Source: a virus. Taken from it: 43,358 nucleotides of DNA. Positions 171 through 36,042 of the stretch are shown in pieces. The DNA is taken from positions 1 through 43,358 of IMG/VR virus record IMGVR_UViG_3300026512_000218; one strand, given 5' to 3'. Each line of letters opens with the position of its first letter. The stretch's first letter is position 1. Position numbers and translations under genes: made by a program. The notes under the pieces are model-generated. The model was not told the DNA's origin. It searched no databases and saw only the letters and a list, made by a program, of their open reading frames with translations.

Positions 171-261
171 TATTTTCTCCCTTATTTTCATTATTTATAA
201 TATTATAATTAAAAAATCATTAAATTAAAATCTAACAAATTAAAATCCAACAAATTAAAAT

Positions 262-2064: not shown

Positions 2065-2066
2065 AA

Positions 2067-5116: not shown

Positions 5117-5140
5117 AATATCTCCTAATCTTGTCTGTTT

Positions 5141-5153
5141 ATATTATTATAAT
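5141..5153 (-). promoter_or_regulatory. Putative promoter motif (TTATAATAATAT type)
   Basis: On the minus strand this reads ATTATAATAATAT, about 25 nt upstream of the exonuclease start and just after a terminator. The same motif recurs in most gene-free gaps. The assignment is by recurrence only, in a very AT-rich background. Confidence 0.35.
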
Positions 5154-5182
5154 ATTTTTTTTAAGTATTTAAAATAATAATA

Positions 5183-5208
5183 AAAAATCACCATTGCTGA
5201 TGATTTTT
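5183..5208 (-). terminator. Rho-independent terminator after the HD-domain gene
   Basis: On the minus strand a 10-bp stem AAAAATCATC/GGTGATTTTT with a 6-nt loop is followed by T-rich sequence. It lies 38 nt past the stop of the gene at 5246-5923. Confidence 0.7.
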
Positions 5209-5245
5209 AAGTTAATGAATTGGGAATTGAGTTGAATAATTTAAT

Positions 5246-5923: not shown

Positions 5924-5965
5924 TATATTCTCCTTTACTTTGTGTAAATATACATTATATTATTG

Positions 5966-6418
5966 CTATTTCTTAATAAAGTTATAACTATAATTCATTG
6001 ATAATGACTTTTTATCTGATTTTAAAATATTGATATTTAAAATACCATCTTTAATTGTACTTATTGTATTTGAAACATTATAGTTTTTATTAATTCCCCA
6101 CATATAAATAAACATATTGTCATTAACAGTTAAACCATTATAAATATATGCTCTATTTGTGTTTTTAGATTTATTTTTTTGTTTATTATATTTATCAATA
6201 TTATCTACATCATTAATACGAATTTCAATTGAATTTGTTTCTTCATAAATGTTAATAACAATATTATCTGGATTAATATTACAAATTGGAATATTAAAAT
6301 TTAAACTTTTATTTTCGTCTAAAAAAATATCGTATAATGCTGAACTTGTATTTGTTGATTTAATGATGTCACTTAACTCACTTAATTTATTCTGTTCACT
6401 TTGTTTGTTAAATTTCAT
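5966..6418 (-). CDS. Hsp20/alpha-crystallin-like small protein
   Basis: The product is 150 residues behind AAGGAGTTAAA. Residues about 35-75 (FNIPICNINPDNIVINIYEE followed by IEIRI) and about 115-135 (ISTIKDGILNINI) resemble the beta-sandwich and terminal strand of the small heat-shock domain, which binds unfolded proteins. T4-like phages commonly carry an Hsp20-family gene. The match is by strand pattern rather than catalytic motif, so confidence is moderate. It lies 18 nt downstream of the tmRNA-like gene, and another protein of the same fold lies on the other side of that RNA. Confidence 0.5.
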   Translation of the reverse strand: MKFNKQSEQNKLSELSDIIKSTNTSSALYDIFLDENKSLNFNIPICNINPDNIVINIYEETNSIEIRINDVDNIDKYNKQKNKSKNTNRAYIYNGLTVNDNMFIYMWGINKNYNVSNTISTIKDGILNINILKSDKKSLSMNYSYNFIKK

Positions 6419-6436
6419 TTTAACTCCTTAATAAAA

Positions 6437-6569
6437 TGGTGGAGCAAACGGGATTTGAACCCGTGTCCCTCATATCATTAGTTAAGTCTTCCAGTAGTCG
6501 TTTTAAATGCATTTATCTACCTTATAGTGAAGTTAACATTTAGATACAAAGTCGAAACCTTTTTGCCCC
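6437..6569 (-). ncRNA. ssrA: Short tmRNA-like RNA (133 nt)
   Basis: On the minus strand the RNA begins GGGGCAAAAAGGTTTCGAC, matching the tmRNA 5' consensus (GGGG, then GGNTTCGAC). It ends with a T-arm (ACGGG, loop TTCAAAT, CCCGT) and TTGCTCCACCA. The 7-base acceptor GGGGCAA pairs with TTGCTCC with one G-U, and CCA is encoded. Inside, GTATC/GATAT, GTTAA/TTAAC and CTTC/GAAG can stack as one long P2-like helix. Usual tmRNAs are about 300-400 nt with pseudoknots and a tag frame. Here the only candidate tag is a 10-codon frame from GCA that ends at TAA inside the helix. It may be a minimal, tag-less or decayed tmRNA. No D-arm or anticodon arm supports a plain tRNA. Confidence 0.65.
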
Positions 6570-6578
6570 ATAAATAAA

Positions 6579-6596
6579 GGGGTAGAATTCTACCCC
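6579..6596 (-). terminator. Hairpin between the Hsp20-like gene and the tmRNA-like RNA
   Basis: A perfect 7-bp stem GGGGTAG/CTACCCC with loop AATT is followed by TTTATTTAT on the minus strand. It ends only 9 nt before the tmRNA 5' end, so it could be a terminator or a processing hairpin; there is no room for a separate promoter. Confidence 0.65.
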
Positions 6597-6607
6597 AAAT
6601 TAATTAA

Positions 6608-7219
6608 CTAATCTACTTCAATTTTTATAATATTATCGTCCGTTTTTTTATCTTTATTAAGTGGGACAATAATTCGCAACAGAGATTTTGATTTAAGTAA
6701 TTTTGATGTAACTTTTGTTAAATCATATTTTTCATCAACAAAAAAACTTGCATTAAAATAACTCTGAACTGCAATTGATTTGTACAAATAATCTTTAGTA
6801 TCGTATTTATCTTTACTATGATTACTAAACATAATGTTTAAATGACTTTCTTGTAAATCTGCTGTAATGTTAATATCTTCTTGAGTAATATCATTTGCTT
6901 GAATTTCAAAAATTAAATTCCCATCATTATCCTTGTACACATCATAGAATTCTTTTTCCATACGTCGATTTCCTCCATTTTGTTTTTTTTCATTTAATTG
7001 TTTATCAACATTTTTATTTTGTTGACTGAGTTTTAACATTTCTTGTTTTTTTTCTTCTTCAACAATTGCTTGTTCAACCATTTCATTAAATTCTTCAAAC
7101 CATGTATCAAATAATGTTTTTCTAACGTGTTTAACAGGTTTAACAGGTTTAATTGGGGTATTATCTACTCTACCACCGTTTGCATTTCCGAATAATTCAT
7201 CAAACATATTAATAATCAT
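6608..7219 (-). CDS. Hsp20-like protein with charged N-terminal linker
   Basis: The product is 203 residues; SD GGAGGAAAGAAA precedes the first ATG, and a second in-frame ATG lies four codons in. Residues 1-90 are a linker rich in Lys, Glu and Gln (PIKPVKPVKHVRK, then EEEKKQEMLKLSQQ) likely to be disordered or helical. Residues 95-200 have the small heat-shock pattern: FEIQANDITQEDINITADLQ, a later SFFVDEKYDLTKVTSKLLKS and a final LLRIIVPL strand. A chaperone-like role is inferred from fold only. It is the gene immediately upstream of the tmRNA-like RNA, separated from it by a hairpin. Confidence 0.5.
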   Translation of the reverse strand: MIINMFDELFGNANGGRVDNTPIKPVKPVKHVRKTLFDTWFEEFNEMVEQAIVEEEKKQEMLKLSQQNKNVDKQLNEKKQNGGNRRMEKEFYDVYKDNDGNLIFEIQANDITQEDINITADLQESHLNIMFSNHSKDKYDTKDYLYKSIAVQSYFNASFFVDEKYDLTKVTSKLLKSKSLLRIIVPLNKDKKTDDNIIKIEVD

Positions 7220-7332
7220 TTTCTTTCCTCCTATTTATGATTTTAATTATTTATTACTACTTAATATTATAATTAAAAAATCTTATTTTTAAAATTTTTT
7301 TTAATTTTTTTTAATTTTTTAATGTTATAAAA

Positions 7333-7569
7333 TTATATACAAAATGATTCATTTACCATAATTATTATTTCTTCAGTTTTTTTAAAAACATCAATTTCTT
7401 GTAATTTGTTTAATTTACTTAACTCATTCAATGTATTCAATTCAGTAAACATTTTTTTTAATTTTTCTGAATTTTCAATATCAAGTGAATCGAATAATTT
7501 ATTTAAAATTTTCATCATTTTTTCATTTTCAATTGTTTTATTATTAGTTATAACTACATCATTATTCAT
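7333..7569 (-). CDS. Small hypothetical protein, helical
   Basis: The product is 78 residues behind AAAGGAGTTAAAA, so translation is likely. The sequence is Asn/Glu/Lys-rich with regular Leu spacing (LNKLFDSLDIENSEKLKKMF, then LNTLNELSKLNKLQEI), which suggests one long helix or a short coiled coil. No family is recognised. It is divergent from the receiver-PAS gene at 7725; the two share the AT-rich gap 7570-7724. Confidence 0.55.
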   Translation of the reverse strand: MNNDVVITNNKTIENEKMMKILNKLFDSLDIENSEKLKKMFTELNTLNELSKLNKLQEIDVFKKTEEIIIMVNESFCI

Positions 7570-14478: not shown

Positions 14479-15219
14479 TTATTTATCTGTAGTTTTAAAG
14501 GTTTGTAATGTTTCAATAATCATACTTAAAATTTCTTTTTTCGATAAAATTGTTGTATTAAATTTTAAAAATTTAGTATGTTTAAAAAAATCTAATTTTT
14601 GTATCTGATTAAATGATTTTAAAAACATTGTATTAAATTCTTCTAATGTTTGTAAATATTCTGTAATAGTATTTAAATTATTTGGATTTTCAATTTTATC
14701 TAATCCTTTAATATTTTTCCCATCTCGCATAATAATTCTATCTTTTAATAAAGACACATCATCTGTATATAATAAAACAAAAATATTAGGTGCTACAATA
14801 TTTTTTTTATTTTTATTTAATATAAAATCAACATACTCGATTGAATTATTTTGATAAGTCATTGTCGATAATAAACTTCTATCAATTAAAATATTTTTAA
14901 ATTTTAATAAAGTATCTTCATTAATATTTTTTAAATTTTGTATTCGATGTTCCCAAACAATATCCGATTGAATCTGTTTATCGGAATATTTACTTATTTC
15001 TTTTTGTTTGTCTTTCGATAATGATAAAATTTTTTTAAAATTATATTCATCTAACTTTAATAGTTCACCAATAATTGTTGTTTTACCAATATTTGAAATT
15101 CCATCAATATTAATTATTACTCTATTTTGTGCTTTTAATTTAGAATTTTGTTGTATTTTTTCCCATTTATCCGAATATGATTTTCCACCATAATATACTT
15201 TAAACGAATCTGTATGCAT
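14479..15219 (-). CDS. P-loop thymidylate/deoxynucleoside kinase-like protein
   Basis: The product is 246 residues behind GGAGGAAACAAT. IINIDGISNIGKTT (about 35-48) is the Walker A of NMP kinases, with Asn replacing the usual Gly/Val before GKT. ILIDRSLLST (about 110-120) is the DR motif, and RIIMRDG is a lid-like basic stretch. It probably phosphorylates dTMP or a related nucleotide in support of the thymidylate set (ThyX, dUTPase). The 32-residue N-terminal extension before the P-loop is unusual. A second, shorter kinase of similar design is at 17747-18241. Confidence 0.65.
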   Translation of the reverse strand: MHTDSFKVYYGGKSYSDKWEKIQQNSKLKAQNRVIINIDGISNIGKTTIIGELLKLDEYNFKKILSLSKDKQKEISKYSDKQIQSDIVWEHRIQNLKNINEDTLLKFKNILIDRSLLSTMTYQNNSIEYVDFILNKNKKNIVAPNIFVLLYTDDVSLLKDRIIMRDGKNIKGLDKIENPNNLNTITEYLQTLEEFNTMFLKSFNQIQKLDFFKHTKFLKFNTTILSKKEILSMIIETLQTFKTTDK

Positions 15220-17073: not shown

Positions 17074-17754
17074 TTACTTAAATGGATATTCCCATTTAAC
17101 ACCACAACTCATTTTTCCTTGATGACATTTTTTACATTTTGCCTCCATATAGCAATCTGGTCCTACTAATTTAAATAATTCTGGAAAATGATTTATGCAA
17201 TGTTCATACATTTTTGTAGTAACAATTTGCATTTCCTCAACATTTCTATGACATAATCGTAAATTAAATAAATTTATTAATGACCTTGCATTAATTGTAA
17301 TTATTAAATTATTTTCCATTCCTCCAGGTAATATTTGTCTTGCTTCTCATTTTGGAACATTATTATCAATTAATTTAGAATATAATTTTATTGTATTTTT
17401 AAAATTTTCTTCAACTTCTTTATTATTAACTAATGACTCATCGACAACTAAATTATATTCATTATATGTTTGATAGTGTTGTGAACCTGATGTATATGAA
17501 GCGTGTCTGTGTCTTGTTATTTGTGTTAAAAAATTTCTACTTGCTCCAGTAATTACAAATGTATAATTAATATGCTCAAACAAACTGGTATGATTTGCAT
17601 TTAATAAAAATTTAATTTGATTAGTCATTTCTGAATGTGATATTTTTTTAAAATTTTTTTTCATTGTAATATTCATTAACAAAGTTATTAACTCAATAGG
17701 ATTTTCAGTTTTTCTAATTAACTCTACCGTAATATCATTATATGTTTTAATCAT
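17074..17754 (-). CDS. thyX: Flavin-dependent thymidylate synthase ThyX
   Basis: The product is 226 residues after reading TGA at codon 136 as Trp (VPKWEARQILPGG), which joins two ORFs of one fold. The ThyX signature is present in divergent form, RHRHASYTSGSQHY. The distal nucleotide-binding part reads ARSLINLFNLRLCHRNVEEM. It converts dUMP to dTMP with FADH2 and methylene-tetrahydrofolate. ATG 17754 is preferred to TTG 17763 because of SD spacing; the start overlaps the kinase stop by 8 bases. The C-terminus has extra Cys residues (CKKCHQGKMSCG) suggesting a small metal site. Confidence 0.92.
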
Positions 17755-18241
17755 TTTTCTCAATTTCCTTTATTAAATTATAAATTATATTCGCAATTTG
17801 TTTTGGTGATAATACACTTGAATCTATCACAAATTTATATCGATAATTACTGCGATTAAACTCTTCTAAAAATTTAATCTTAATATCATCAATATCTTTA
17901 ATATCAATATTTTTATTATCAAATCTATCAATAATAACATTAGTATCCGCTGTTATTAAAATTAATACAACATTTGGTAGTTTTAACTCTAATTGCCTAA
18001 TATAATTCGGATAATAATTTCTGTATAATTGTCCATACACACATTCAGATAAAAATAGTCTATCCATAATATGATTATTTGTATGTTGCAAATTAATAGT
18101 TTTTTGTTCATATAATTGTTTAGTTTCTAATTTTGATTTACCAGCAGCGTTATGTTCTACTGTGAAATCATCTAATTTTAATAATTCAGTTATAACTGTG
18201 CTTTTACCAACACAATCACACCCTTCAATTAATATATTCAT
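17747..18241 (-). CDS. P-loop nucleotide kinase (thymidylate-kinase-like)
   Basis: The product is 164 residues behind GGAGGAAAT. MNILIEGCDCVGKST is a Walker A at the extreme N-terminus, and HIMDRLFLSECVYGQLY is the DR-like acceptor motif. The chain is short for a dTMP kinase (about 205-210 residues), so it may be a minimal phage version or a deoxynucleoside kinase. Its 3' end overlaps thyX, consistent with a shared thymidylate role. A paralogue is at 14479-15219. Confidence 0.7.
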   Translation of the reverse strand: MNILIEGCDCVGKSTVITELLKLDDFTVEHNAAGKSKLETKQLYEQKTINLQHTNNHIMDRLFLSECVYGQLYRNYYPNYIRQLELKLPNVVLILITADTNVIIDRFDNKNIDIKDIDDIKIKFLEEFNRSNYRYKFVIDSSVLSPKQIANIIYNLIKEIEKND

Positions 18242-18768: not shown

Positions 18769-20109
18769 TTATTTACTCTTAATATTTAAGATTGGTTTCA
18801 CATTATATAATATTTCAACTGTTTCTTTAATATTTTTTTTAATAACATTTGAATCTTTATAAACATCTGGTGCTTCATCTAATACACTCTTTACAATTGA
18901 TGATGAATATATTCCATCCATTTGTTTTTTAAACTCTGATAAACTTAATTCTCTTTTTGCTTGCATTCTTGATAAAATTCTTCCAGCACCATGTGGAGCA
19001 GAATAATTCCAATTTTTATTTCCTTTTCCTTTAGCAATTATTAATCCGTCTCTCATATTAAAAGGTATAATAACAACTTCATCTTTATGTGCAGAAATTG
19101 CACCTTTTCTAATTATGTTATCTTGAAAATTAATATAATTATGAATTGATTCAATTACTTGAATTTTACTAAATGAAAAATAATCAAGAATTTTTTGCAT
19201 CATAATTTTTCTATTTAATTTTGCATATTCTTGACCAATTATCATATCAATTAAATAATTCTTTAATTCATCATTTTCTAAATAATATTCTTTATTACCT
19301 TTATTACTTTCTTTTTTTGATAAATTATTATATTTAATTTTTAATTCTGAAATTAAATCATTATAATCTTTTGGATTATTATTTAATTTCAATAATTCTA
19401 ACTCTTTTTGATACATTTCTTTAGATTTTTCTACATCAATTAAATTATGTAATTTTGCAATATTTGTATGATATTTACAAATTTGTTGTCCAAGATTTCT
19501 TGAACCTGAATGAATTGTTATCCAAACATTACTATTTTCATCTTTACCAAATTCTATAAAATGATTACCACCTCCTAAAGTACCAACACTATTTTCAATT
19601 CTTGTTAGTAATTTTCTGCAATCTTTTCTTTTTGATAAACTTTCACTATATTTTTTAATCATTAATTTAAATTTACTATAATCAAAACCTGTATAAAATT
19701 TATCAACATACACTTTAATTAATTTTGTTACTTCTTTAAAATCGAATTCTTTTTCAAAATTAAATTTATTAGTTTCTGGATTATGAATATTAAATCCCAT
19801 TGGAATAATTTTTCTAATAACTTCATCTATCGTTTTTAAATTATCATCAGTAAATGTATGTTTACCAATATTAACTGATAACATTCCACAACCAATATCT
19901 ACTCCAACTAATTCTGGATTTAATTTTTTACCCAATTCCATTGTAAAACCAATAACAGAACCAGTACCAGCATGACAATCGGGCATTATTTTAATTGGAT
20001 TAGTAAATGTTGAATTATTAGTCATATCTGAAATTTGTTTAAATGTTGTGTCATCAATTTTGTCAATCATTATATCCGCTGTCGTATGACTTCCTTTAAT
20101 TGTCATCAT
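18769..20109 (-). CDS. rtcB: RNA ligase RtcB
   Basis: The product is 446 residues, about usual family length. Motifs in order: MPDCHAGTGSVIG, VGVDIGCGM (metal-binding Asp and Cys), GTLGGGNHFIE, HSGSRNLG, RKGAISAHK and SAPHGAGR (guanylation His). RtcB joins 2',3'-cyclic phosphate or 3'-phosphate RNA ends to 5'-OH ends using GTP and Mn; phages use it to repair tRNAs cut by host defences. An inserted Lys/Asn-rich segment near 270-285 (SKKESNKGNKEYYLEND) is a likely surface loop. The receiver-like gene follows downstream. Confidence 0.95.
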   Translation of the reverse strand: MMTIKGSHTTADIMIDKIDDTTFKQISDMTNNSTFTNPIKIMPDCHAGTGSVIGFTMELGKKLNPELVGVDIGCGMLSVNIGKHTFTDDNLKTIDEVIRKIIPMGFNIHNPETNKFNFEKEFDFKEVTKLIKVYVDKFYTGFDYSKFKLMIKKYSESLSKRKDCRKLLTRIENSVGTLGGGNHFIEFGKDENSNVWITIHSGSRNLGQQICKYHTNIAKLHNLIDVEKSKEMYQKELELLKLNNNPKDYNDLISELKIKYNNLSKKESNKGNKEYYLENDELKNYLIDMIIGQEYAKLNRKIMMQKILDYFSFSKIQVIESIHNYINFQDNIIRKGAISAHKDEVVIIPFNMRDGLIIAKGKGNKNWNYSAPHGAGRILSRMQAKRELSLSEFKKQMDGIYSSSIVKSVLDEAPDVYKDSNVIKKNIKETVEILYNVKPILNIKSK

Positions 20110-20469
20110 AATTATAACTCCTTTTTGTTTTTTTATTATTTATTATTTATCACTTATCACTTATCACTTATCAAAATATTATAATTAAAATTTTTGTTTT
20201 TTAAATTTTTTTTAATTTTTTTTAAATTTTTTTTAATTTTTTTTAATTTTTTTTAAGTTTTTTATTTTTTTTTATTTTTTTTTAATTTTTTCAATTCAAA
20301 TATTTATTTTTTTATGGTATTTTTATAAATAAATTTTTATATTATAATATAATTAATATTTTTTTAAAATTTTTTTATTTTTATTTTATTATAAAAAAAT
20401 GTGTATGATTTTACACATACACATTTATAATTTCTAAGTATTTTAAATTAATAAATTAAAACATAATTA
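20110..20469. other. Low-complexity gene-free gap
   Basis: 360 bases hold 7-bp ATCACTT-type repeats near 20150, long T tracts in ~9-10 bp steps (20190-20300), promoter-like ATTATAAT motifs near 20180 and 20340, and the reductase terminator at the left-strand end. No ORF is seen. Confidence 0.6.
20397..20426 (-). terminator. Rho-independent terminator after the reductase cluster
   Basis: On the minus strand an 11-bp stem AAATGTGTATG/CATACACATTT with an 8-nt loop is followed by a T run. It lies 43 bases past the stop of the last reductase fragment. Confidence 0.8.
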
Positions 20470-21462
20470 TTAACCACATTTACTAAATCCACATTCCGGA
20501 TTAGTACACGAAATACATCCTTCAACATAAATCATTTTTGAACCACATTCAGGACAAATTTCTTTACTCTCAACTCCATTCTCAATTAAACTCATTAAAT
20601 GTTTTCTAATCCAAAATATTAAACTTGATATTGATTCAGTAAATTCTTCTAAACAATTTACAATTTCGATAATTTTAATATTATGTCTTAATGCCATAGA
20701 TATTACTCTTGAAATTTTATCAACATTTGATTGTTTATTCATTTTTTCTTTTAATGAATCTATTAACATATCAGAAATATTATATTTCTTTAATAAATTA
20801 ATTAAATTATCAATAACATCATTCGTTACATTAGTTTTTTCTGTATTATTTGTCACAATAAAAAATTCAAACGGTTTTTTCATTTTTTCAGTTACATATC
20901 CAACCATAAAATAATACTTTTTATTTTTTCCCAAATTAATTTTAGTACGTTTTAAATATGATTTCTTTGGTGGATTTATACCTTCAGTTATAACATTATC
21001 TCCATATTGTTTATATAATCTAATTAATTCATGTTCCGTTATTTCACTATTAGATTTATCTGTAACTTTATTTAATACACCAGTTCTACATCCGTCCCGA
21101 TAGACAGTTGTCCCTTTAATATGCAATTTATGTGCTAATAAATAAGCATTTGAAACATCTTCTTGTGTTGCTGATGATGGTAAATTCACTGTATTATGTG
21201 TGGGAATACCATTTGCATAATATGAATGTGAATTATCATTTATTTCTAAATCCCCAGTTTGAACACCTTTAATAAATTCAATTTTAGTTACTGTTTTTAT
21301 TCGCGGAAATAATATTGCACGTAAATTAAAAATATGCTCATTAGTTACATTATCAAAATTTAATTTTTCAATATCTTTTTTCATTTGCTCAATTGATGTA
21401 GTATCTCTATATTCTTTTGATATTAATTCATTTGTATTACTTATTGATTTTAAATAATTCAT
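20470..21462 (-). CDS. Ribonucleotide reductase fragment 4 (C-terminal) with split-intein C half
   Basis: The product is 330 residues behind AGGAGAAAAAA. Residues 1-90 are a split-intein C half: a ~55-residue extra N-terminal segment, then EFIKGVQTGDLEI and SHSYYANGIPTHN ending His-Asn, with Thr91 as +1 residue. The extein begins TVNLPSSATQEDVSNAYLLA, which completes the class II motif ISKTVNxPxxAT when joined to fragment 3. KGTTVYRDG follows, then a family C-terminal region ending in a zinc/redox Cys motif (CPECGSK, CTNPECGFSKCG) typical of B12-dependent NrdJ. It is followed by a terminator, so it closes the reductase transcript. Confidence 0.9.
   Translation of the reverse strand: MNYLKSISNTNELISKEYRDTTSIEQMKKDIEKLNFDNVTNEHIFNLRAILFPRIKTVTKIEFIKGVQTGDLEINDNSHSYYANGIPTHNTVNLPSSATQEDVSNAYLLAHKLHIKGTTVYRDGCRTGVLNKVTDKSNSEITEHELIRLYKQYGDNVITEGINPPKKSYLKRTKINLGKNKKYYFMVGYVTEKMKKPFEFFIVTNNTEKTNVTNDVIDNLINLLKKYNISDMLIDSLKEKMNKQSNVDKISRVISMALRHNIKIIEIVNCLEEFTESISSLIFWIRKHLMSLIENGVESKEICPECGSKMIYVEGCISCTNPECGFSKCG
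21193..21462 (-). other. Split intein C half (reductase junction 3)
   Basis: It covers residues 1-90 of fragment 4. It ends YANGIPTHN before Thr. It is about twice as long as typical C halves because of a ~55-residue N-terminal segment. Its partner is at 21549-21854. Confidence 0.85.
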
Positions 21463-21545
21463 TTTTTTCTCCTATCTAAATTTCTTTGATATATGTGGAC
21501 ATTTATTCATTTTACAATACTCCCTCTTTTTTAAAAATAAAACAA

Positions 21546-22232
21546 TTACGGTTTTATTTGCATTCCAATTTTTACATCACTTAGTTTTTCCCATTTATCA
21601 TCTATATAAACTTTATGATTTAATGTTCCACTAAATGTTGAATTATCATCAAACGTTAATTTTATTACATTTTGTATACCATTATTATATAATGATTTTA
21701 TTTCTACATTTTCTTTTTTATGATTTTTTAAAACAAAATTTTCTTGACTAACATCAAAAAATTCATCTTCATTAATATGTTTATTTTCAAATAATTCATC
21801 CATATAATAAATTTTATTATTAATAATGACCATGGTGTTTTTTATATCCACACATTTAGATATACTTCCATCAATAAATTCTTGAAATTTTGCTTGTGTT
21901 TTTATATGTTGTTCGGGTGTTACATCTTCTGCAGTAACTAAATATTCCTTATATTCATCATATAAATTTTGCTCTTGTAATTCTTTAACAATTTCTGGTA
22001 CAATTATTCTTTTTCCTAAAACATCATTTCTTTCATACTCAAATTGAAAATATGGTTCTAATCCACCATTAACATTTACTAACATTGACGTTGAATTGTG
22101 TGAAACAGTTCCATCTTCTAATAAATAGTAATGAGATTTATTTACTTCAATATCATACGTATGTTTATTTTCATGATTAATCGATTCAATTTGTTTTGTT
22201 TTATATTTTTTCGGTAATTTTATTAATTTCAT
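21546..22232 (-). CDS. Ribonucleotide reductase fragment 3 with intein halves at both ends
   Basis: The product is 228 residues behind AGGAGGAAGTA. Residues 1-46 are a split-intein C half (HTYDIEVNKSHYYLLEDGTV, ending SHN). Ser47 starts the extein STSMLVNVNGGLEPYF, which continues the APTG of fragment 2. The extein is only 80 residues (47-126) and ends DGSISK. Cys127 begins a split-intein N half (CVDIKNTMV, block B-like SGTLNHKVYIDD, ending GMQIKP). To act, this piece must be spliced at both ends. It lies 18 bases downstream of fragment 2. Confidence 0.92.
   Translation of the reverse strand: MKLIKLPKKYKTKQIESINHENKHTYDIEVNKSHYYLLEDGTVSHNSTSMLVNVNGGLEPYFQFEYERNDVLGKRIIVPEIVKELQEQNLYDEYKEYLVTAEDVTPEQHIKTQAKFQEFIDGSISKCVDIKNTMVIINNKIYYMDELFENKHINEDEFFDVSQENFVLKNHKKENVEIKSLYNNGIQNVIKLTFDDNSTFSGTLNHKVYIDDKWEKLSDVKIGMQIKP
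21549..21854 (-). other. Split intein N half (reductase junction 3)
   Basis: It covers residues 127-228 of fragment 3. It starts with Cys after SISK; TFDDNSTFSGTLNHKVY is the block B region and SDVKIGMQ the strand before the split point. No block F or G is present. Confidence 0.87.
22095..22232 (-). other. Split intein C half (reductase junction 2)
   Basis: It covers residues 1-46 of fragment 3, with canonical block F (HTYDIEV) and block G ending Ser-His-Asn before Ser. Confidence 0.9.
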
Positions 22233-22250
22233 TACTTCCTCCTTTATGTA

Positions 22251-23198
22251 TTAAGTTAAATCAACAATTATTTCATCGGACTTCGTTAAATCTTTAACAG
22301 ACTTCCAATATCCATATCCTTCTTTTTCTGTTGATTTTACTAAAAATTTATGTTCATTAGTCCCAACAAAAGAAGTATTGTCATTAAATTTAATATTATT
22401 AACTGCACCATAACCATTATAAAATAATCTATTAACTGTTTGAATTTCACCATTGATATTAATTACATTAAAACTATTTTTTAAATCAATCCATTGTTTT
22501 TTACCAATTTTTTCTAAATCGATATAATTAATATCATTTTCAATTAATATTTCTTTAATTGATTTAATACCATCAGTTGTTTTAATTTTAGTTTCAAAAA
22601 TCGAACACCCAGTAGGAGCAATATTTAAAATTTTACCATTTCTTAAACCATATTTATTAACCAAATCAATTGTTTCTTTTGAACATTTATTTAAGTAATA
22701 CGGATTTAATTCGTAATCATTATATACAGGTGCTTTGCCTAATTTTTTTGCCCGTAATGCAGAATATTTATATGATTTATCTAATATAAATGTCATTAAT
22801 TTTTCAATAAATTTTAATGATTCTTCAGAACCATATTTTATTTTTTTCAAAATTAATAAATCAGCATACCCCATTAAACCAAGTCCCAAATCTCTATAAT
22901 ATTTTTGATTTTTTTCAATTCCTTTATCAAAATATTGTTCAGTTTCAATTGATTCATCTAAATAATCAATACCATTTTTAATTATATTATCAAGCATATC
23001 CCAATTAATATTATCTGGATATTTTTCAATATCTGATGTATATAATAATTTTAAATTAATTGATGCGAGATTACAACTTGAACCACTACCATCTTTTCCA
23101 ATTGGTAATATTTGTTCTCCACAATCTACATTTAAAATTGAATTCTGATAATAATTTTTATTAATTATGAATGGGTTACTTATTTTTTTAATTTTCAT
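22251..23198 (-). CDS. Ribonucleotide reductase fragment 2 (active-site core) with intein-like ends
   Basis: The product is 315 residues behind AAGGAGATAGAAA. Residues 1-25 are a short intein-C-like leader ending ILNVD. The extein starts at Cys26, CGEQILPIGKDGSGSSCNLA, where the first Cys is the family's thiyl-radical catalytic cysteine (NPCGE in intact NrdJ). It runs through GLGLMGYADLL to LNIAPTG at 197. Cys198 opens a split-intein N half (CSIFETKI, then DNTSFVGTNEHKFLV, ending EIIVDLT). A TTATAATA-type promoter motif lies in the 91-base gap upstream, so fragments 2-4 may have their own transcript. Confidence 0.92.
   Translation of the reverse strand: MKIKKISNPFIINKNYYQNSILNVDCGEQILPIGKDGSGSSCNLASINLKLLYTSDIEKYPDNINWDMLDNIIKNGIDYLDESIETEQYFDKGIEKNQKYYRDLGLGLMGYADLLILKKIKYGSEESLKFIEKLMTFILDKSYKYSALRAKKLGKAPVYNDYELNPYYLNKCSKETIDLVNKYGLRNGKILNIAPTGCSIFETKIKTTDGIKSIKEILIENDINYIDLEKIGKKQWIDLKNSFNVININGEIQTVNRLFYNGYGAVNNIKFNDNTSFVGTNEHKFLVKSTEKEGYGYWKSVKDLTKSDEIIVDLT
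22254..22607 (-). other. Split intein N half (reductase junction 2)
   Basis: It covers residues 198-315 of fragment 2. It starts with Cys after APTG; block B-like SFVGTNEHKFLV; ends after KDLTKSDEIIVDLT with no C-terminal splicing block. Confidence 0.88.
23124..23198 (-). other. Short, atypical split intein C half (reductase junction 1)
   Basis: It covers residues 1-25 of fragment 2. KNYYQNSILNVD aligns with block G (HNFFANGILVHN) but ends Val-Asp rather than His-Asn before Cys. It is shorter than the usual ~35-45 residues, and block F is hard to see. Confidence 0.55.
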
Positions 23199-23257
23199 TT
23201 TCTATCTCCTTAATAATATTATTTAAATTTTTCCTTATCACCTATTTAATAACAATT

Positions 23258-23270
23258 ATATATTATAATA
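23258..23270 (-). promoter_or_regulatory. Putative internal promoter between reductase fragments 1 and 2
   Basis: On the minus strand this reads TATTATAATATAT, the recurring motif, about 60 bases upstream of the fragment 2 start. It would allow fragments 2-4 to be made separately from fragment 1. Confidence 0.35.
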
Positions 23271-23289
23271 AAGAAAAAACTTAAAATAA

Positions 23290-24738
23290 TTATTCCAATT
23301 CATCATTTTCCCGTAAATCAATTGCAAATTTTTGTTCATTATTTTTTAGATTAACTACGTCATAAATATTAAAATTAATATTATCATTAACAACAACAAT
23401 TTCAGTGTTTACATATTCTTGCTTATTTAAAACACTAAAAAAATTATAATTTGGAATAGCAGTTAAATCATATACATCTTGTTTATAATTCAATTCACCT
23501 ATATTTATAATATTTGCAACTTTTCCGCTATTTGTTTGTATCTTTGGTAATTCAGTTGATTTTAACAAATCTTCAATTTTAATTTTATTATATTTTTCAT
23601 CATAAAATTTATGTTGTTTATTAGTTAATCTATATTGGTTTATATCAAATTCAGTTTTTATAATATCATCATTTTTTTCTGTAATTCCAACCCATTCCAA
23701 TTCTGAATTAAACAATTTACCATCTTTATTTTGTGTTATTATTTTTAATTGAGGATATTCTTCTTTATATTTTTTTAAATTCTCAATTTTAATCCAACCA
23801 ATATTAGTCATAACTAATGTTTCACCAACTACACATGGATTTGTTGTATTAATATAAGTTGCTTTTTTATAATTATTTGTTTCATTAACATTATCTTCAA
23901 ATATAATTCCTGGTTCTCCAGTTTTCCAAGCATTTTCAATAATATTATCCCATAATTTTCTTGCCTTTATTGTTTCATAAACAAGAACAGGATAACCGTT
24001 TTCAATCCATTCTCGTATATTCCCTGTCCAATGTTCATTATAAAATTCTTTTCCAACTTTTTTAAAATCTGGAAAAATTAAATCATAATCTTCATCATTT
24101 TCAACTGCATCAATAAACTTCTTATCAATAAAAACAGATATATTCATATTTTGTAATTTAGTTAAATCTTGTTTAACATTTATAAAATTAAATATATCTG
24201 GGTGATTACAATTAAGTAAACCAATTAATGCACCACGTCTATTTCCACCCTGTGTTATTGTTTCTTGTGTTTTTGCAAATCGTTCTATAAATGGAACAAC
24301 ACCAGAAGATGTAATATTTGCCCCCTCAAATTCTTCTTTAATTTTTGCTCGTTTAGGTCTAAGCACTGAAAAATTAACACCAATTCCACCTCCTTTTGAT
24401 GAAACTGTGTCAGAACGTCTTTCTAAATCAGAAATCCCTAATCTTGAATCTCTACCTTCATTATTAAGATTTTTGAAACCAAGTGCATAACAATTAAATA
24501 ATGTTCGTAACTGTTCATATCCTCTACCAGTTAAATGCCTTCCTGCAGGTATAAATTTTCCTGTATATAATAAATCAAATTGTTCATTATTATATGAAAC
24601 ACGTTCACACATTTCTTTATATGTTTCATTATTTATTTTATATTTCTTTTTAAAAACACTTTCATTAAGTTTAAAAGGTAAAATGTTATCTTTTTCTTTT
24701 TCAGTATTCTCATTTTTTAAATTATTTTTATTTAGCAT
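23290..24738 (-). CDS. Class II ribonucleotide reductase fragment 1 (N-terminal) with long intein N half
   Basis: The product is 482 residues behind GGGGGATTA. The extein (1-301) has family landmarks: GKFIPAGRHL, TLFNCYALGF (first redox Cys), SKGGGIGVNFS, TQGGNRRGA, GEPGIIFEDN and NTTNP. Cys302 starts an intein (CVVGETLVMTNIGWIKIENL; block B-like RLTNKQHKFY). Unlike other N halves, it continues through a block F-like KQDVYDLTAIPNYNFFSVL and then ~45 more residues to DLRENDELE. The protein reduces ribonucleotides for phage DNA synthesis; class II enzymes use adenosylcobalamin and need no small subunit, and none is seen here. Confidence 0.9.
   Translation of the reverse strand: MLNKNNLKNENTEKEKDNILPFKLNESVFKKKYKINNETYKEMCERVSYNNEQFDLLYTGKFIPAGRHLTGRGYEQLRTLFNCYALGFKNLNNEGRDSRLGISDLERRSDTVSSKGGGIGVNFSVLRPKRAKIKEEFEGANITSSGVVPFIERFAKTQETITQGGNRRGALIGLLNCNHPDIFNFINVKQDLTKLQNMNISVFIDKKFIDAVENDEDYDLIFPDFKKVGKEFYNEHWTGNIREWIENGYPVLVYETIKARKLWDNIIENAWKTGEPGIIFEDNVNETNNYKKATYINTTNPCVVGETLVMTNIGWIKIENLKKYKEEYPQLKIITQNKDGKLFNSELEWVGITEKNDDIIKTEFDINQYRLTNKQHKFYDEKYNKIKIEDLLKSTELPKIQTNSGKVANIINIGELNYKQDVYDLTAIPNYNFFSVLNKQEYVNTEIVVVNDNINFNIYDVVNLKNNEQKFAIDLRENDELE
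23293..23835 (-). other. Long intein N half (reductase junction 1)
   Basis: It covers residues 302-482 (181 residues). It contains block A, block B and a block F-like segment ending YVN before Thr, followed by ~38 residues resembling the end of another N half (EQKFAIDLRENDEL). Either the split point is shifted far to the C side or two intein pieces are fused. Confidence 0.7.
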
Positions 24739-25911: not shown

Positions 25912-26922
25912 TTATACTTTTAATATTTTATCTTTATTTTCAATTAAATCATAATTTTCAGAAAAATTAAATTGACTGTCCCAAATTATTGCCCATTCAT
26001 ATATTCCAACAGTTAATTGTTTATTTTGTTGCAATTTTGATTTAACACTTTTAACTCGTTTAAAAAATTTTTTATATTTATCAAAATCTTTATGATTATT
26101 CATATATTCCAATACTATTGATTTAACCTTATTACTATAAATAAATTCAGAAAAAGGTTCTAATACTTGTCTGTCAAAATACTCTTCATAATCCATAGAA
26201 ATAATATCAGAATATTTTTCAAAAATATAAAAATGTTCAGGATTTAAACAAATTTCTTTTTTCTCAAATTCCCCGCTTTCAGGATTTTTATATTTAACAA
26301 AAAACATATATGGTTTATCTTCACTGGTAATATTTACACCATCGAAAGTATTTGCTAACATCCCAGCTTTAACATGTTGAGGCATTGTTTTATTATACGC
26401 ATTAAACGGTTTACTAAATGCTTTAACAATTCCAATCTCTTTTAATGGGGATTTTAAAATTAAATCGTATACATCTTGTAAATCTTTATATGTTATAATA
26501 TCTCTAACAGTTTTATTTGCTAATGTATTTAATTCAGTTTTTAAAATTGATGGTGTATCTTTTCTAATAATAGATAATCCTTTAATATAAATTGAACCAT
26601 CCTTTCTAATTGCATAATATCGTTTTTTAACACCAGAACTGAAATAATAATCTAAATAATTTTCATATTCCAATTCTAATAAATTAAATTTTGGGTCAAA
26701 TTCTGGATTATAAACATTAATAAATTCTTTACGTAAAACATCATTAAATTCTGAACTAAATATCTCATCAATAGTTTTATCATCTTCATGTCTAAATGAT
26801 GTGAATACACTATCAGTATCTATATATGTAATAAACGGCCGTTCTGTATGTTTATAAATAAATTTACTAACTTTATAATTATCTTCATAATCATCTTTTG
26901 AGTCTTTAAAACTTCGTGACAT
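25912..26922 (-). CDS. Family B DNA polymerase, C-terminal fragment (motif C, thumb)
   Basis: The product is 336 residues behind GGAGTTAGAAT. YIDTDSVF (about 32-39) is polymerase motif C with the two catalytic Asp, and KKRYYAIRKDG (about 98-108) is the KKxY motif. The rest matches the T4 gp43 thumb in length and helix content. It lacks the exonuclease domain and motifs A and B, which are at 29323-31191. No intein sequence precedes it, so the two parts should assemble without covalent joining. It starts 4 bases after the zinc-ribbon gene stop. Confidence 0.9.
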   Translation of the reverse strand: MSRSFKDSKDDYEDNYKVSKFIYKHTERPFITYIDTDSVFTSFRHEDDKTIDEIFSSEFNDVLRKEFINVYNPEFDPKFNLLELEYENYLDYYFSSGVKKRYYAIRKDGSIYIKGLSIIRKDTPSILKTELNTLANKTVRDIITYKDLQDVYDLILKSPLKEIGIVKAFSKPFNAYNKTMPQHVKAGMLANTFDGVNITSEDKPYMFFVKYKNPESGEFEKKEICLNPEHFYIFEKYSDIISMDYEEYFDRQVLEPFSEFIYSNKVKSIVLEYMNNHKDFDKYKKFFKRVKSVKSKLQQNKQLTVGIYEWAIIWDSQFNFSENYDLIENKDKILKV

Positions 26923-29322: not shown

Positions 29323-31191
29323 TTACTTTCCTTCAGTTATTCCTTTATAAAAATTCGGTAGTTTAACTTCACCATATTTACTATTTAAATATTTTGACAT
29401 TTTTGTCCATTTATATTGACCTTGAAAATAATTTTCAGCAACTCTTATTAATTTTCTACCATAAAATGTTGTAGCATCTGCAACTCTAAAATTATTTAAT
29501 CTGAAAAATTTAGATGCCATAGCACCGTAACTACTATTTAAAATAATCTTAAATACATATTGACGTTTATCTAATACTTTATAATTAACATTATCTTTAT
29601 CATATTTTTTCATTTCACGTTTAAACTGTTTTCTATCTTTATATAATTCAAATAATGAATCTGGTAATATACCTATTTTTGTTTTATGACTCATAAATAT
29701 ATAACGTTTTTCAACTAATTCATCAGAATATCCTGTATCACTAAATTTAATATTATTTTTTATTAATTCTGGTAATATATCTCTATCAATATCTAAACCA
29801 TTATTTTCAGCAATAGTATGAGAAATTATAAATGTTTCAGGACTTAGATTCATAATCATTTCAGTTGTCGGATATAAACTTGCATAATCAAATATTCCCA
29901 AATTTCGTTGTACTCCTGCGACAACAGGTTCTTTCACATAAGCACCCATATATTTTACTTGTTCTTTTAATGTATCTGCAGGAAATATTTTTTTAGTATT
30001 ATTATAATATCTTGAAATTAAAAAATGGTCAATTAATACAGTTTGTTGAAATTTTTGACTTAATTTTGTAATATTTGTAATATCTTGAATCATATAAAAT
30101 AAATCAAACATTTGCAATTTAGCATCAAGTTTTTTCAATATTTCAACATCTCTATAACCATATTTAATAAATCCTTCAAAATCATCTTTCCAATCTTTCC
30201 AAGAAGATGCTTTAATTTTACTCATATCGTCACCTAACAAATTAACTGCAATATCATCTAATTTATTTGTAGGCATTTTAATATTTAACATTGCAACTGC
30301 ATCCATCATATCAATGTGGTCAACTCCTTTAATAGTTGTAAAGAAATTATTTTTTCGTGAATTATATTTACACATTACCCATTTTGTAGGACTTATTGTT
30401 GCAAATGTTTCTTTTAATCCTAAATTAGATGCTCTATTAATTAAATAGGGAACATCATATCCACCAGAATACCATCCACTTATTACATCAGGAGATAACA
30501 TTTTAAATAATTTTATAAATACTTCAAATAAAATTAATTCAGATGTACATTTTATTAAATTTAAAATTTCACCATTTTCACCAGTTTGCACTTCTGATAT
30601 TACTGATTCTTTATTATTTTTAAATGATTCATGTCATGAAATAATATAATACTCATCTGATAATGATGAATATAATTGTATAGAAGTAACTGGTTGCATA
30701 GCCATTTTTGGTTTATTTGACTCTGGGTTTTTAACATCATACCATGTTTCAATATCAAATAAAACAAGATGTCTATTTTGACTCCATTCAATTGTATCAG
30801 AATGTTCATTTAAATATTTTAATTCTGGTGATATATCTAACATAAACGCATTATGCTTTATTGTATTTTGAAGTATTGTTTGTTTTTTATTCCTTGAAAT
30901 AATTCCATATTTAAATTTTAATTTATTAATTTTAAATTTTAATAATTTATCTCCAAATAATGATTCATAATTTTGTTGATTAGTATTTTCATCTATTGAA
31001 ACAAATGGTTCGATAGATTTATTTCCAATATATTCTTTTAATTCTTCTAATTTATCAATTGGATAATAAAAAAAATCTATAAATTTTTCTACAGTTATAT
31101 GTGGTTCATTATTATCATCCCACCATTTTAAAAAAATATTATATATTCCATTTCTAAAATCCGGTTCACTTCAAATTTGAGTTATTTTCAT
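29323..31191 (-). CDS. Family B DNA polymerase, N-terminal fragment (exonuclease, motifs A and B)
   Basis: The product is 622 residues after reading TGA as Trp at codons 7 and 186, which joins three ORFs. LFDIET (145-149) is exonuclease motif I, SGWYSGGYDVPYL motif II and YGYRDVEIL motif III. FDYASLYPTTE is polymerase motif A and KIILNSSYGAMAS motif B. The chain ends about 70 residues after motif B at GITEGK, before motif C. Together with the 336-residue C fragment the total is close to T4 gp43. T4-related Aeromonas phages are also known to have a split gene 43. It is the replicative polymerase with proofreading activity. Confidence 0.93.
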
Positions 31192-33692: not shown

Positions 33693-34292
33693 TTAATACT
33701 CAAATTTAGCGAATGGATGTAATATCCTATTAAATAATTTAGCTTTAGTTCGATTAAATGCAACAGTTTTTTTATATTGTTTAATTTCATTTATAATCGA
33801 TTTTGGAATAGCTTTTTCCTCTGCCATAAATTCTAACGGTTCTGAATAAACTAACCATTTATTTATATTAGAATTTGGTAAAGATTTTTTTTCATTTTCA
33901 GGAACATTTAATAATGTAAAATATTCACAATATATTTTTGATGTATTTGAACAAAATGAAAAATTAATTTCCAAATCATCTATTTTCTTTGTAGTTTTTT
34001 CTACACCTTTTGTATCCAATGCTTCAGTTAGTAAATACAAAGATTCTTTAACCGTTTGCAATATTCTATTATCTTCTCTAATAGTTTTAATTAAATCAAA
34101 TGAAGTATCATCATAAAAAATATATAAACCGGCACCTATAAAAAATGTAAGTATTTTATATATTTCTTCATTTGTTAAATCATCTGCATCCACTTTATTT
34201 ATCGTATAAAATAAATTAAATGAAACAGTATCTTCAATATCACTAAATAAATCTTCTTTTTTATGAATGTTAATTTTCAGTTTTGTCATCAT
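33693..34292 (-). CDS. Unknown protein downstream of RecA
   Basis: The product is 199 residues. ATG 34292 or 34289 follows AGAAGGG; the upstream in-frame ATGs lie inside recA and lack an SD. It overlaps the recA end by 23 bases, so it is coupled to it. The sequence is acidic in the first half (DADDLTNEEIYKILTFFIGA) and basic at the end (YKKTVAFNRTKAKLFNRILH). Position next to RecA suggests a recombination helper such as a UvsY-like mediator, but I see no diagnostic motif. Confidence 0.55.
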   Translation of the reverse strand: MMTKLKINIHKKEDLFSDIEDTVSFNLFYTINKVDADDLTNEEIYKILTFFIGAGLYIFYDDTSFDLIKTIREDNRILQTVKESLYLLTEALDTKGVEKTTKKIDDLEINFSFCSNTSKIYCEYFTLLNVPENEKKSLPNSNINKWLVYSEPLEFMAEEKAIPKSIINEIKQYKKTVAFNRTKAKLFNRILHPFAKFEY

Positions 34293-36042
34293 TCCCTTCT
34301 TGTAATTGTTCATCATCTGATTTTTGATTATCATCTGATTTATCATTTTTATCAGAATCAATTTTACCACTAACTGAATCTGAAACAGTCATTGCTTTAA
34401 TTTTCTTTTCTTCCATAACTGATGAATAATTTTTTTCAAATAATAATTTTTCTTTTTCGATGTCATTAACATTTCTAATTTTAACAATTAATTTACTTGC
34501 AATCATTTTTAAAATTGGTATTTTAAATTCTGGATGTTCTTTTAACATTTCCATAAAACCAGAATCACTTCTAAATTTATAATCATCAGCAATAATTTCT
34601 CCAGTATCTGGGTCAGTTATTGTAATTTTAAAATAACCACCTGCTCCACCAGTGACCAATTTATATTTCTTTAACTCTTCTAACCAACTACCTTCATTTT
34701 CAACACCACTTGAAAAATAAATATTAAATTTTGTTGAATTATAAAGTGTTCCAAATCTCGATTTAGTTACATTTAAATTTCCCTTAACACCAATTACTTG
34801 TTCAATACCATCTTGTTTTTCTTTTATCTTTCCAGAACTTCTTAATCTTAAACTTAATGATGAATAAAATTTTAATGCATCTCCACCAGAACTTTCTACA
34901 TACGGGTCTTCAAATAAACTTGCACCTAATTTTTGTCTTAATTGTGATGTTACAACTAATGCAACTTTTTGACGTTTTATATTATTAGCAATTTGTTTTA
35001 ATGAACGTGAGTTAACTCTTGCTTTATGTGTTGAATATCCTCCTAATTCATGATTTTTTGCTTCAATATCATGTTTTGAACTTGCAGAAGTCATTGAATC
35101 AATTATAATTAATATTTTTTTATCTGAAAATTGCTCTCGTATTGATAATATAATTTCATCAATATAGCTATAAATATTTTCAATAATTTCTTCTTCAACC
35201 AAAATCATATTATTTGTATCAACACCTAATCGTTCCCAAAATGCTGATGATGTTGCTGATTCTGTATCAAAATAAACTGCAATTCCACCTTGTTTTTGAA
35301 TATTTTTAATTAAATGCGCGCATATTAAAGATTTTCCTGAATTATGATTATACATTTTATTACCAAAATATGCATGTTCATTTTCAACTGTTACATCAAC
35401 AATTTTGTGTAATCCAATATAATCAATAGAAATTACTTTTCTATATTTTCCATCTTCGCATAATATACTATTTGTATGTGGTTTTAGTTGTCTTGTTTTC
35501 AACCATCCAACTTCAGTAAAAAATTTATGGTCATTTGAAACTTTAATTGATGAATAATTATCTTGTAATAAAACTTCATACGTTTTTATTACACCTTTAT
35601 CAATATAATCAGTAATTTGATTAAATTTTTCATTCAATCCTTTTACTTTTACAATCTTACCATTCTTTAATAAATCATCAATTTCTTTAATTTTTATAAT
35701 TTTAGATTCTGTAGTCTTTTCAACAATAACTTCAATATTTGTATCTTCTGTAACACATCCAGGATTTCCACTAAGAGAAGTAATTCTACCTAACGGAATT
35801 CCACCATGAACAACATTTGAAATTACTATATCTGCAACCTCATTACCAATACTTATCCAACCTGGTATTGTTGCAACATCATCTTCAGATAATTTAGATG
35901 CAACTTTAATTCCAGATAATTTATTAATTTTTTTAACTAACATATTAGCTAATTTTAAATTTTCTTTTGAAATTTCAGAGTCAGTTTTAATATCAATTTT
36001 TTCATTTTTTTCTTTATCTATTTTTTTAGTTTTACTTGCCAT
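34270..36042 (-). CDS. uvsX: RecA/UvsX recombinase with mini-intein in Walker A
   Basis: The product is 590 residues behind AAAAGGAGACAGAT. The extein has GGIPLGRITSLSGNPG (Walker A first half, to residue 95), then a 139-residue intein (96-234), then SGKSLICAHLIKN. KKILIIIDSMTSAS is Walker B, and ALVVTSQLRQK plus the SSGGDALKFYSS segment are RecA-fold landmarks. The C-terminal 50 residues are acidic and Ser/Asp-rich. Without the intein the protein is ~451 residues. It pairs homologous DNA during recombination-dependent replication. It is followed by an overlapping unknown gene. Confidence 0.93.
   Translation of the reverse strand: MASKTKKIDKEKNEKIDIKTDSEISKENLKLANMLVKKINKLSGIKVASKLSEDDVATIPGWISIGNEVADIVISNVVHGGIPLGRITSLSGNPGCVTEDTNIEVIVEKTTESKIIKIKEIDDLLKNGKIVKVKGLNEKFNQITDYIDKGVIKTYEVLLQDNYSSIKVSNDHKFFTEVGWLKTRQLKPHTNSILCEDGKYRKVISIDYIGLHKIVDVTVENEHAYFGNKMYNHNSGKSLICAHLIKNIQKQGGIAVYFDTESATSSAFWERLGVDTNNMILVEEEIIENIYSYIDEIILSIREQFSDKKILIIIDSMTSASSKHDIEAKNHELGGYSTHKARVNSRSLKQIANNIKRQKVALVVTSQLRQKLGASLFEDPYVESSGGDALKFYSSLSLRLRSSGKIKEKQDGIEQVIGVKGNLNVTKSRFGTLYNSTKFNIYFSSGVENEGSWLEELKKYKLVTGGAGGYFKITITDPDTGEIIADDYKFRSDSGFMEMLKEHPEFKIPILKMIASKLIVKIRNVNDIEKEKLLFEKNYSSVMEEKKIKAMTVSDSVSGKIDSDKNDKSDDNQKSDDEQLQEGNDDKTEN
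35341..35757 (-). other. Continuous mini-intein in RecA
   Basis: It covers residues 96-234 (139 residues): Cys start after GNPG, block B-like VSNDHKFFTEVGW, block F VDVTVENEHAYF and end YNHN before Ser. No endonuclease domain. Splicing restores GNPGSGKS. Confidence 0.92.

What the first reader, a model, noticed from the sequence alone, without database searches (positions are those of the whole stretch)
20470..24738. Class II ribonucleotide reductase encoded in four genes linked by three split-intein junctions
Seen: four consecutive minus-strand genes, each with its own SD, carry successive parts of one NrdJ chain (…NTTNP / CGEQ…APTG / STSM…SISK / TVNLP…). Each break is flanked by an intein N half starting with Cys and a C-half-like leader ending before the next extein residue. 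The +1 residues are Cys, Ser and Thr, one of each kind. Known: single split inteins in NrdA/NrdJ have been reported from metagenomes. Inference: a full enzyme needs three orthogonal trans-splicing reactions in one protein, and the piece at 21546-22232 must splice at both ends. I know of no described protein assembled this way from four genes.
Basis: partly seen in the sequence, partly recalled or inferred. Interest (0 to 1): 0.92.

Follow-up and report, generated by a model that had tools for sequence, protein, structure and literature searches.

The report
Phage ribonucleotide reductase in four genes
An uncultured phage encodes one DNA-building enzyme, a vitamin-B12-type ribonucleotide reductase, in four separate genes; two of the three joins are clearly built to be sealed by protein trans-splicing, while the third join is broken in a different way that still has to be explained.

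Summary
The four minus-strand genes are real. Their exteins join without gaps at all three breaks into a 793-aa class II reductase (NrdJ_Z 480 bits, cut-off 400; NrdE_NrdA stays below its cut-off). Breaks are at NP|C, APTG|S and SISK|T. Breaks 2 and 3 are bona fide split inteins by sequence: N-halves with Cys1 and TxxH, canonical C-halves ending HN|S and HN|T (0 of 500 shuffles score as well). Each groups with inteins of the same insertion site in other phages, where they are mostly split with a homing endonuclease gene between the halves. Gene 3 is a double-ended piece, 80 aa of enzyme between a C-half and an N-half. Break 1 is not a normal split intein: gene 1 carries a complete Hint domain (Foldseek: Npu DnaE TM 0.80) homologous to cis inteins at this site, followed by Asp and 30 more residues, and the 25-aa leader of gene 2 resembles a C-half no better than shuffled sequence. 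Of about 180 viral NrdJ loci inspected, none other has more than one split intein. So "three split inteins" is partly supported: two firm, one unresolved. No splicing was tested.

The parts
23290..24738 (-). gene 1 (482 aa): NrdJ residues 1-301 ending INTTNP, then a complete intein (Hint) domain and a tail
23836..24738 (-). extein 1 (301 aa)
23386..23835 (-). intein at break 1, C302-N451: blocks A, B, F and a G-like strand EIVVVN; complete Hint fold on one chain
   Evidence: alignment to 15 site-1 cis inteins; AlphaFold, most of residues 1-130 above pLDDT 80; Foldseek TMt 0.80 to Npu DnaE 4kl5, 0.74 to NrdJ-1 8ubs
23293..23385 (-). 31-aa C-terminal tail of gene 1 (DNINFN...NDELE), predicted disordered
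23199..23289 (-). 91-nt gap between genes 1 and 2, with the SD AAGGAG of gene 2
   Evidence: no Rfam intron
22251..23198 (-). gene 2 (315 aa): 25-aa leader, NrdJ CGEQ...APTG, N-half of intein 2
23124..23198 (-). 25-aa leader MKIKKISNPFIINKNYYQNSILNVD before the catalytic Cys; no C-intein signal above chance
22608..23123 (-). extein 2 (172 aa), begins with the catalytic Cys (+1)
22254..22607 (-). N-half of split intein 2 (118 aa), Cys1, block B TNEH
   Evidence: 42 bits to N-intein profile; groups with site-2 inteins
21546..22232 (-). gene 3 (228 aa), double-ended piece: C-half of intein 2, 80-aa extein, N-half of intein 3
22095..22232 (-). C-half of split intein 2 (46 aa) ending VSHN before Ser
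   Evidence: TIGR01443 21.5 bits, cut-off 15.6; 0/500 shuffles
21855..22094 (-). extein 3 (80 aa)
21549..21854 (-). N-half of split intein 3 (102 aa), Cys1, block B TLNH
   Evidence: 34 bits; 33% identity to the site-3 split intein of L223, E 7e-17
20470..21462 (-). gene 4 (330 aa): C-half of intein 3 and NrdJ TVNLP...SKCG
21193..21462 (-). C-half of split intein 3 (90 aa with an N-terminal extension) ending PTHN before Thr
   Evidence: TIGR01443 21.5 bits; 48% identity over 95 aa to L223, E 4.5e-31
20473..21192 (-). extein 4 (240 aa) with C-terminal Cys-rich tail
20397..20426 (-). terminator-like hairpin after gene 4; none found between the four genes

Best explanation
A phage class II (adenosylcobalamin) ribonucleotide reductase is made from four co-directional cistrons. 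Products of genes 2, 3 and 4 are joined covalently by two unrelated, presumably orthogonal split inteins at APTG|S and SISK|T; gene 3 is spliced at both ends. Break 1, at NP|C just before the catalytic thiyl cysteine, is an intein-derived break of another kind: an originally cis intein stays whole on gene 1, and 262 bp now separate it from its C-extein, which is translated from its own start with a 25-aa leader. How chain 1 is united with chain 2 (atypical trans-splicing, ligation, or non-covalent assembly) is not settled. Shown by sequence: gene order, gapless exteins, split-intein halves at breaks 2 and 3, a whole Hint on gene 1, no recognisable C-half on gene 2. Inferred: expression, splicing, orthogonality, activity.
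For: Joined exteins pass the NrdJ_Z curated cut-off (480.4 vs 399.95 bits) and fail that of NrdE_NrdA; they align through all three junctions to the solved T. maritima enzyme and to intein-less phage NrdJs. Breaks 2 and 3: family hits, shuffle controls, canonical TxxH and HN|S, HN|T. Site-matched relatives: site 2 split in L009, L029, L031, L174, tree support 0.85-0.97; site 3 split in L223 with an endonuclease gene between the halves, tree support 0.98. Break 1. No TGA, frameshift or internal stop in the four ORFs; the only terminator-like site of the operon that fits is after gene 4.
Against: No expression, splicing or activity data. No homing endonuclease gene lies between any of the halves, unlike in the relatives. 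The C-half at break 3 scores only 13 bits in the window-wide scan, although its relative in L223 is clear. The AlphaFold alignment for gene 1 contained homologous inteins, which favours a Hint model, and its last strand (145-149) is of low confidence. The record is a fragment, so an intact second reductase elsewhere is possible.
Confidence: 0.7

Rival explanations
1. All three breaks are active split inteins; at break 1 the gene 2 leader supplies the last strand of the Hint domain in an atypical split, displacing the strand that gene 1 carries.
For: The leader ends NSILNVD before Cys, which fits the loose pattern N-small-I-L-x-x-(N/Q/D) seen at this site, where terminal residues vary (HN, SN, KN, AQ, RG). 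Inteins with C-terminal Asp have been described as splicing (Amitai 2004, title cited in PMC4031507). A break at the tip of the catalytic loop is hard to tolerate without a covalent bond (inference). The N-part of gene 1 is well conserved (42 bits).
Against: Leader at chance level in two profiles. Gene 1 already holds a complete C-domain. The block B Thr is Asn in gene 1, against Thr in nearly all relatives. The canonical split at this site, L153, puts the C-domain on the downstream gene. The AlphaFold test of leader docking was inconclusive: leader pLDDT about 25, and gene 1's own C-part was also unmodelled.
Confidence: 0.3
2. Break 1 is a genes-in-pieces break: chains 1 and 2+3+4 assemble without a covalent bond, and the intein on gene 1 is a relic or only cleaves itself off. 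Only two trans-splicing reactions happen.
For: Phage Aeh1 NrdA is functional as two chains without splicing, and phage 25 PolB likewise (PMC2988022). The Aeh1 break is about 14 residues beyond the thiyl Cys, in the same segment (Pfam 221|222 against 213|212 here). Fletchervirus NrdA is cut at the same place, with halves far apart in the genome and no intein at that cut.
Against: In Aeh1 and Fletchervirus the catalytic Cys and following Glu stay on chain 1. Here the cut is exactly before the Cys, leaving a folded 150-aa domain on one side and a 25-aa leader on the other.
Confidence: 0.35
3. Break 1 is undone at RNA or ribosome level (small intron or translational bypass over about 260 nt, GAT to GAT), restoring a cis intein that ends VVVND before CGEQ.
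For: Removing 262 nt restores the frame and a normal-length site-1 intein; GAT codons stand on both sides. Introns and inteins both interrupt phage reductase genes (PMC3653736).
Against: No Rfam intron in the region, although Rfam also found none in loci that look intron-split, so this is weak. The segment folds no better than shuffles (z -0.21). It contains a strong SD and an in-frame ATG for gene 2.
Confidence: 0.1
4. The locus is decaying or the contig is wrong at break 1, and the enzyme is not made.
For: Metagenomic contig without reads at hand; only one record; the anatomy of break 1 is irregular.
Against: All four ORFs are open with SDs and no internal stops; catalytic Cys, Asn and Glu and both redox Cys are kept; breaks 2 and 3 are canonical.
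Confidence: 0.15

Closest known systems
Fractured genes with split inteins (Dassa et al. 2009, Global Ocean Sampling; paper not held, cited in PMC3653736 and PMC7090010)
   Same: Enzyme gene cut at a conserved motif with an N-half on the upstream gene and a C-half on the downstream gene; nrdA and nrdJ are reported hosts
   Different: Here at least two split inteins lie in one protein and a middle piece carries a C-half and an N-half; no endonuclease gene sits between the halves
Split NrdJ inteins found here in IMG/VR and INPHARED: L009, L029, L031, L174 (site 2), L153 (site 1), L223 (site 3)
   Same: Same insertion sites and, for breaks 2 and 3, the same intein subfamilies
   Different: Each of these has one split intein with an endonuclease gene between the halves; their other inteins are cis
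Aeromonas phage Aeh1 NrdA genes-in-pieces and Fletchervirus NrdA
   Same: Reductase cut in the segment that carries the thiyl Cys
   Different: No intein at the cut, cut about 14 residues later, class I enzyme, two pieces
Brochothrix phage A9 nrdE in four fragments (PMC3653736)
   Same: A phage reductase gene in four coding fragments
   Different: Interrupted by introns plus an intein-encoded endonuclease, so mended mainly at RNA level, not by split inteins
Engineered multi-piece ligations (PMC7090010) and split-intein cyclisation (own knowledge)
   Same: Gene 3 has the topology C-half, extein, N-half used for tandem ligation, or for cyclisation if the two halves match
   Different: Natural locus with two unrelated inteins

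Membership tests
Class II ribonucleotide reductase (NrdJ) | curated NrdJ_Z score and preference over class I models | tested here: met
   480.4 bits against cut-off 399.95; NrdE_NrdA 260 against 341
Class II ribonucleotide reductase (NrdJ) | thiyl Cys with Asn and Glu (NPCGE) and the redox Cys pair | tested here: met
   alignments to phage NrdJs and T. maritima NrdJ; roles of the residues from own knowledge
Class II ribonucleotide reductase (NrdJ) | adenosylcobalamin-dependent activity, no NrdB needed | not testable with these tools
   no NrdB match among the window proteins scanned, but the record is a fragment
Natural split intein, break 2 | N-half with Cys1 and TxxH at the end of one gene, C-half ending HN before Cys/Ser/Thr at the start of the next, separate starts | tested here: met
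Natural split intein, break 3 | N-half with Cys1 and TxxH at the end of one gene, C-half ending HN before Cys/Ser/Thr at the start of the next, separate starts | tested here: met
   homologous split intein in L223
Natural split intein, break 1 | upstream gene carries only the N-half | tested here: not met
   gene 1 carries a complete Hint including the C-domain
Natural split intein, break 1 | downstream gene begins with a C-half | tested here: not met
   leader scores at chance against general and site-specific profiles
Natural split inteins | trans-splicing activity | not testable with these tools
   needs co-expression
Fractured gene with homing endonuclease | free-standing endonuclease gene between the halves | tested here: not met
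   gaps are 91, 18 and 83 nt; it is met in the relatives and for DnaB in this window
Group I intron-split gene, break 1 | intron RNA structure | tested here: inconclusive
   no Rfam match and z -0.21, but Rfam also missed loci that look intron-split

The most novel reading that the evidence does not exclude
A natural enzyme is built from four separately translated polypeptides by three orthogonal trans-splicing reactions, and at break 1 this uses a new split geometry in which a 25-aa leader replaces the last strand of an already complete intein domain, the +1 nucleophile being the catalytic radical cysteine itself.
Probability: 0.25. Interest if true: 0.88.

Novelty: new variant of a known kind. 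Interest (0 to 1): 0.64.

Why it matters
Single split inteins in phage reductases are known. Two firm ones in the same protein, with a middle piece that must be spliced at both ends, would be a natural case of multi-piece protein assembly and a source of co-evolved orthogonal intein pairs. Gene 3 also has the layout that cyclises a protein if its two halves pair with each other, so nature must have solved orthogonality here. Break 1 shows an intein site at an intermediate or unknown stage between cis splicing and gene fission, exactly at the residue that carries the radical. I did not find a described protein with more than one natural split intein in the papers searched, but the key 2009 paper is not in the library, so priority is not proven.

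Tried and rejected
Single-protein scans of IMG/VR with genes 1 and 2 found nothing. An RtcB-based search for sister phages gave contigs without a reductase. The idea that the gene 2 leader is an ordinary C-half was rejected after shuffle tests. An alignment with truncated rows was mangled and not used. Group I intron at break 1: no support. Structure or paired ends in the 262-bp segment: no better than shuffles. Promoter scan found no excess over shuffles. A search for the site-3 C-half family in 84,980 prokaryote genomes found none, and in IMG/VR only the one contig already known. The tmRNA match at 6437-6569 disappeared in a local run.
Full report
What is there. The window is a 43,358-base virus record from IMG/VR, 21% G+C. 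Four minus-strand ORFs at 24738-20470 encode 482, 315, 228 and 330 aa. Pfam's reductase barrel family matches them in order at positions 9-213, 212-405, 390-500 and 493-523. None contains TGA, so the choice between code 4 and code 11 does not matter for them.

Joined exteins. Cutting at NP|C, APTG|S and SISK|T gives 301+172+80+240 = 793 aa, 91 kDa. At each join the sequence runs without a gap against intein-less phage NrdJs: TTNP-CGEQ against ATNPCGEQ, APTG-STSM against QPTGNSSV, SISK-TVNLP against AMSKTVNLP. It also runs through all three joins against the solved T. maritima enzyme. Only the joined chain passes the curated NrdJ_Z cut-off (480 against 400 bits); the class I model stays below its own cut-off. 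So this is a class II reductase with its catalytic Cys, Asn and Glu in place.

Breaks 2 and 3. The N-half on gene 2 (118 aa) and the C-half on gene 3 (46 aa, VSHN|S) have Cys1, TNEH, the block F Asp and His, and terminal HN. The N-half on gene 3 (102 aa) and the C-half on gene 4 (90 aa, PTHN|T) have Cys1, TLNH, the Asp and His, and HN. Family models find the C-halves above cut-off, and no shuffle among 500 matches them. The relatives are specific to the site. Break 2 groups with inteins at the same place in other phage reductases: NrdJ of LR756500 (L009), L029, L031 and L174, all split with an endonuclease-like gene between, and NrdA of Klebsiella (split) and Campylobacter (cis) phages. Break 3 has one clear relative, contig 3300033233_000841 (L223): N-half 33% identical (E 7e-17), C-half 48% (E 4.5e-31), again with an endonuclease-like gene between the halves. 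The two window inteins are therefore not copies of each other, which argues for orthogonality. Genes 2 and 3 are in one frame, separated only by TAA and 18 nt that hold the SD, so break 2 looks like a mini-intein cut by a stop and a new start.

Break 1. Cis inteins at NP|C are common in phage NrdJ: some twenty in one set of 80 loci. Gene 1 from Cys302 on aligns with them over their whole splicing domain, including the C-domain (KVANIINIGELNYKQDVYDLT...) and a last strand EIVVVN, after which comes Asp rather than Cys. AlphaFold with 15 such relatives gives a Hint fold, most of the first 130 residues above pLDDT 80 and a weaker last strand; Foldseek finds Npu DnaE (TMt 0.80) and NrdJ-1 (0.74). 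The remaining 31 residues are predicted disordered. From the Asn codon to the catalytic Cys codon there are 262 bp, holding the gene 1 tail, a 91-nt gap, and the start and 25-aa leader of gene 2. That leader looks like a C-half no better than shuffled letters in a general profile (192 of 500) or a site-specific one (407 of 1000). For contrast, L153 has a true split intein at this site with a normal C-half, EDVYDLSVDNVHNFFANDLLVHN|CGE, on the downstream gene.

How break 1 might work. (a) Non-covalent assembly has a precedent: phage Aeh1 NrdA works as two chains (PMC2988022). I located its cut about 14 residues beyond the thiyl Cys. Fletchervirus NrdA is cut there too, with its halves far apart in the genome. 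But in those the Cys stays on chain 1, whereas here the cut is directly before it. (b) Atypical trans-splicing, with the leader as last strand, cannot be excluded: terminal residues at this site vary (HN, SN, KN, AQ, RG), and inteins ending in Asp have been reported to splice (cited in PMC4031507). A fused AlphaFold model was uninformative. (c) RNA-level or ribosomal bypass: no intron signal, weak evidence. I give (a) slightly more weight than (b).

Rarity. Of 18 + 80 + 80 viral NrdJ loci inspected with one profile (a few contigs occur twice), plus L214 and L223, none has more than one split intein. L031 has two further inteins in cis and one split. The samples are biased toward similarity to this sequence, and records very near the window are hidden by the tools. 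The record is a fragment, so a second reductase elsewhere is possible.

Genome context. The window is rich in inteins. DnaB has a cis mini-intein at Walker A and a split intein whose C-half I found at the window edge (194-3, minus), with an endonuclease-like gene between the halves. UvsX/RecA has a cis intein at Walker A. TGA is read as Trp: 12 TGA and 59 TGG inside 23 genes, and no gene ends in TGA.

Verdict. The strongest claim, three orthogonal trans-splicing reactions in one protein, remains possible (about 0.25) but is not what the sequence shows at break 1.

Noticed in passing
window 2067-4016 (-), 262-2064 (-), 3-194 (-): DnaB helicase with a cis mini-intein at Walker A (GAGK|C...VSHN|S) and a split intein: N-half at the gene end (QSHR|CIAIDS), a repeat-rich gene with a DUF559 nuclease domain, then a C-half MFFANGIYTKN|SSVESD at the contig edge.
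   Followed up: yes
window 34270-36042 (-): UvsX/RecA-like recombinase with a cis mini-intein inside Walker A (GNPG|C...YNHN|SGKS).
   Followed up: partly
window 29323-31191 and 25912-26922 (-): Family B DNA polymerase appears split into two genes (exonuclease plus start of the polymerase domain; a half with YIDTDS) with a helicase between and no intein seen.
   Followed up: no
window, whole: TGA is used as Trp (12 TGA and 59 TGG inside 23 genes; stops 22 TAA, 1 TAG), suggesting a host with code 4.
   Followed up: partly
window 18769-20109 (-): RtcB RNA ligase gene directly after the reductase operon; best viral relatives found are about 38% identical.
   Followed up: partly
window 14479-15219 and 17747-18241 (-): Two thymidylate-kinase-like genes in one phage, near thymidylate-synthase-, dUTPase- and methyltransferase-like genes.
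   Followed up: no
window 6437-6569 (-): Rfam tmRNA match (58 bits) in the whole-window run that vanished in a local run; ARAGORN finds none; probably an artefact.
   Followed up: partly
L031 (IMGVR_UViG_3300028283_000501) 1550-7477: NrdJ with two cis inteins (INC|L..., NP|C) and one split intein with an endonuclease-like gene at PTGN|S.
   Followed up: yes
L226, L228 (Campylobacter phage F207): NrdA halves at about 54 kb and 122 kb of the record, cut just after the thiyl-Cys loop; the C half also holds a cis intein related to break 2.
   Followed up: partly
L194, L205, L138, L203: NrdJ genes broken into two ORFs with endonuclease-like ORFs between and no intein halves, possibly introns, though Rfam finds none; L194 is cut at NP|C.
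   Followed up: partly
window 22233-22250 (-): Genes 2 and 3 are in one frame, separated only by TAA and 18 nt holding the SD, so split intein 2 looks like a cis mini-intein cut by a stop and a new start.
   Followed up: partly
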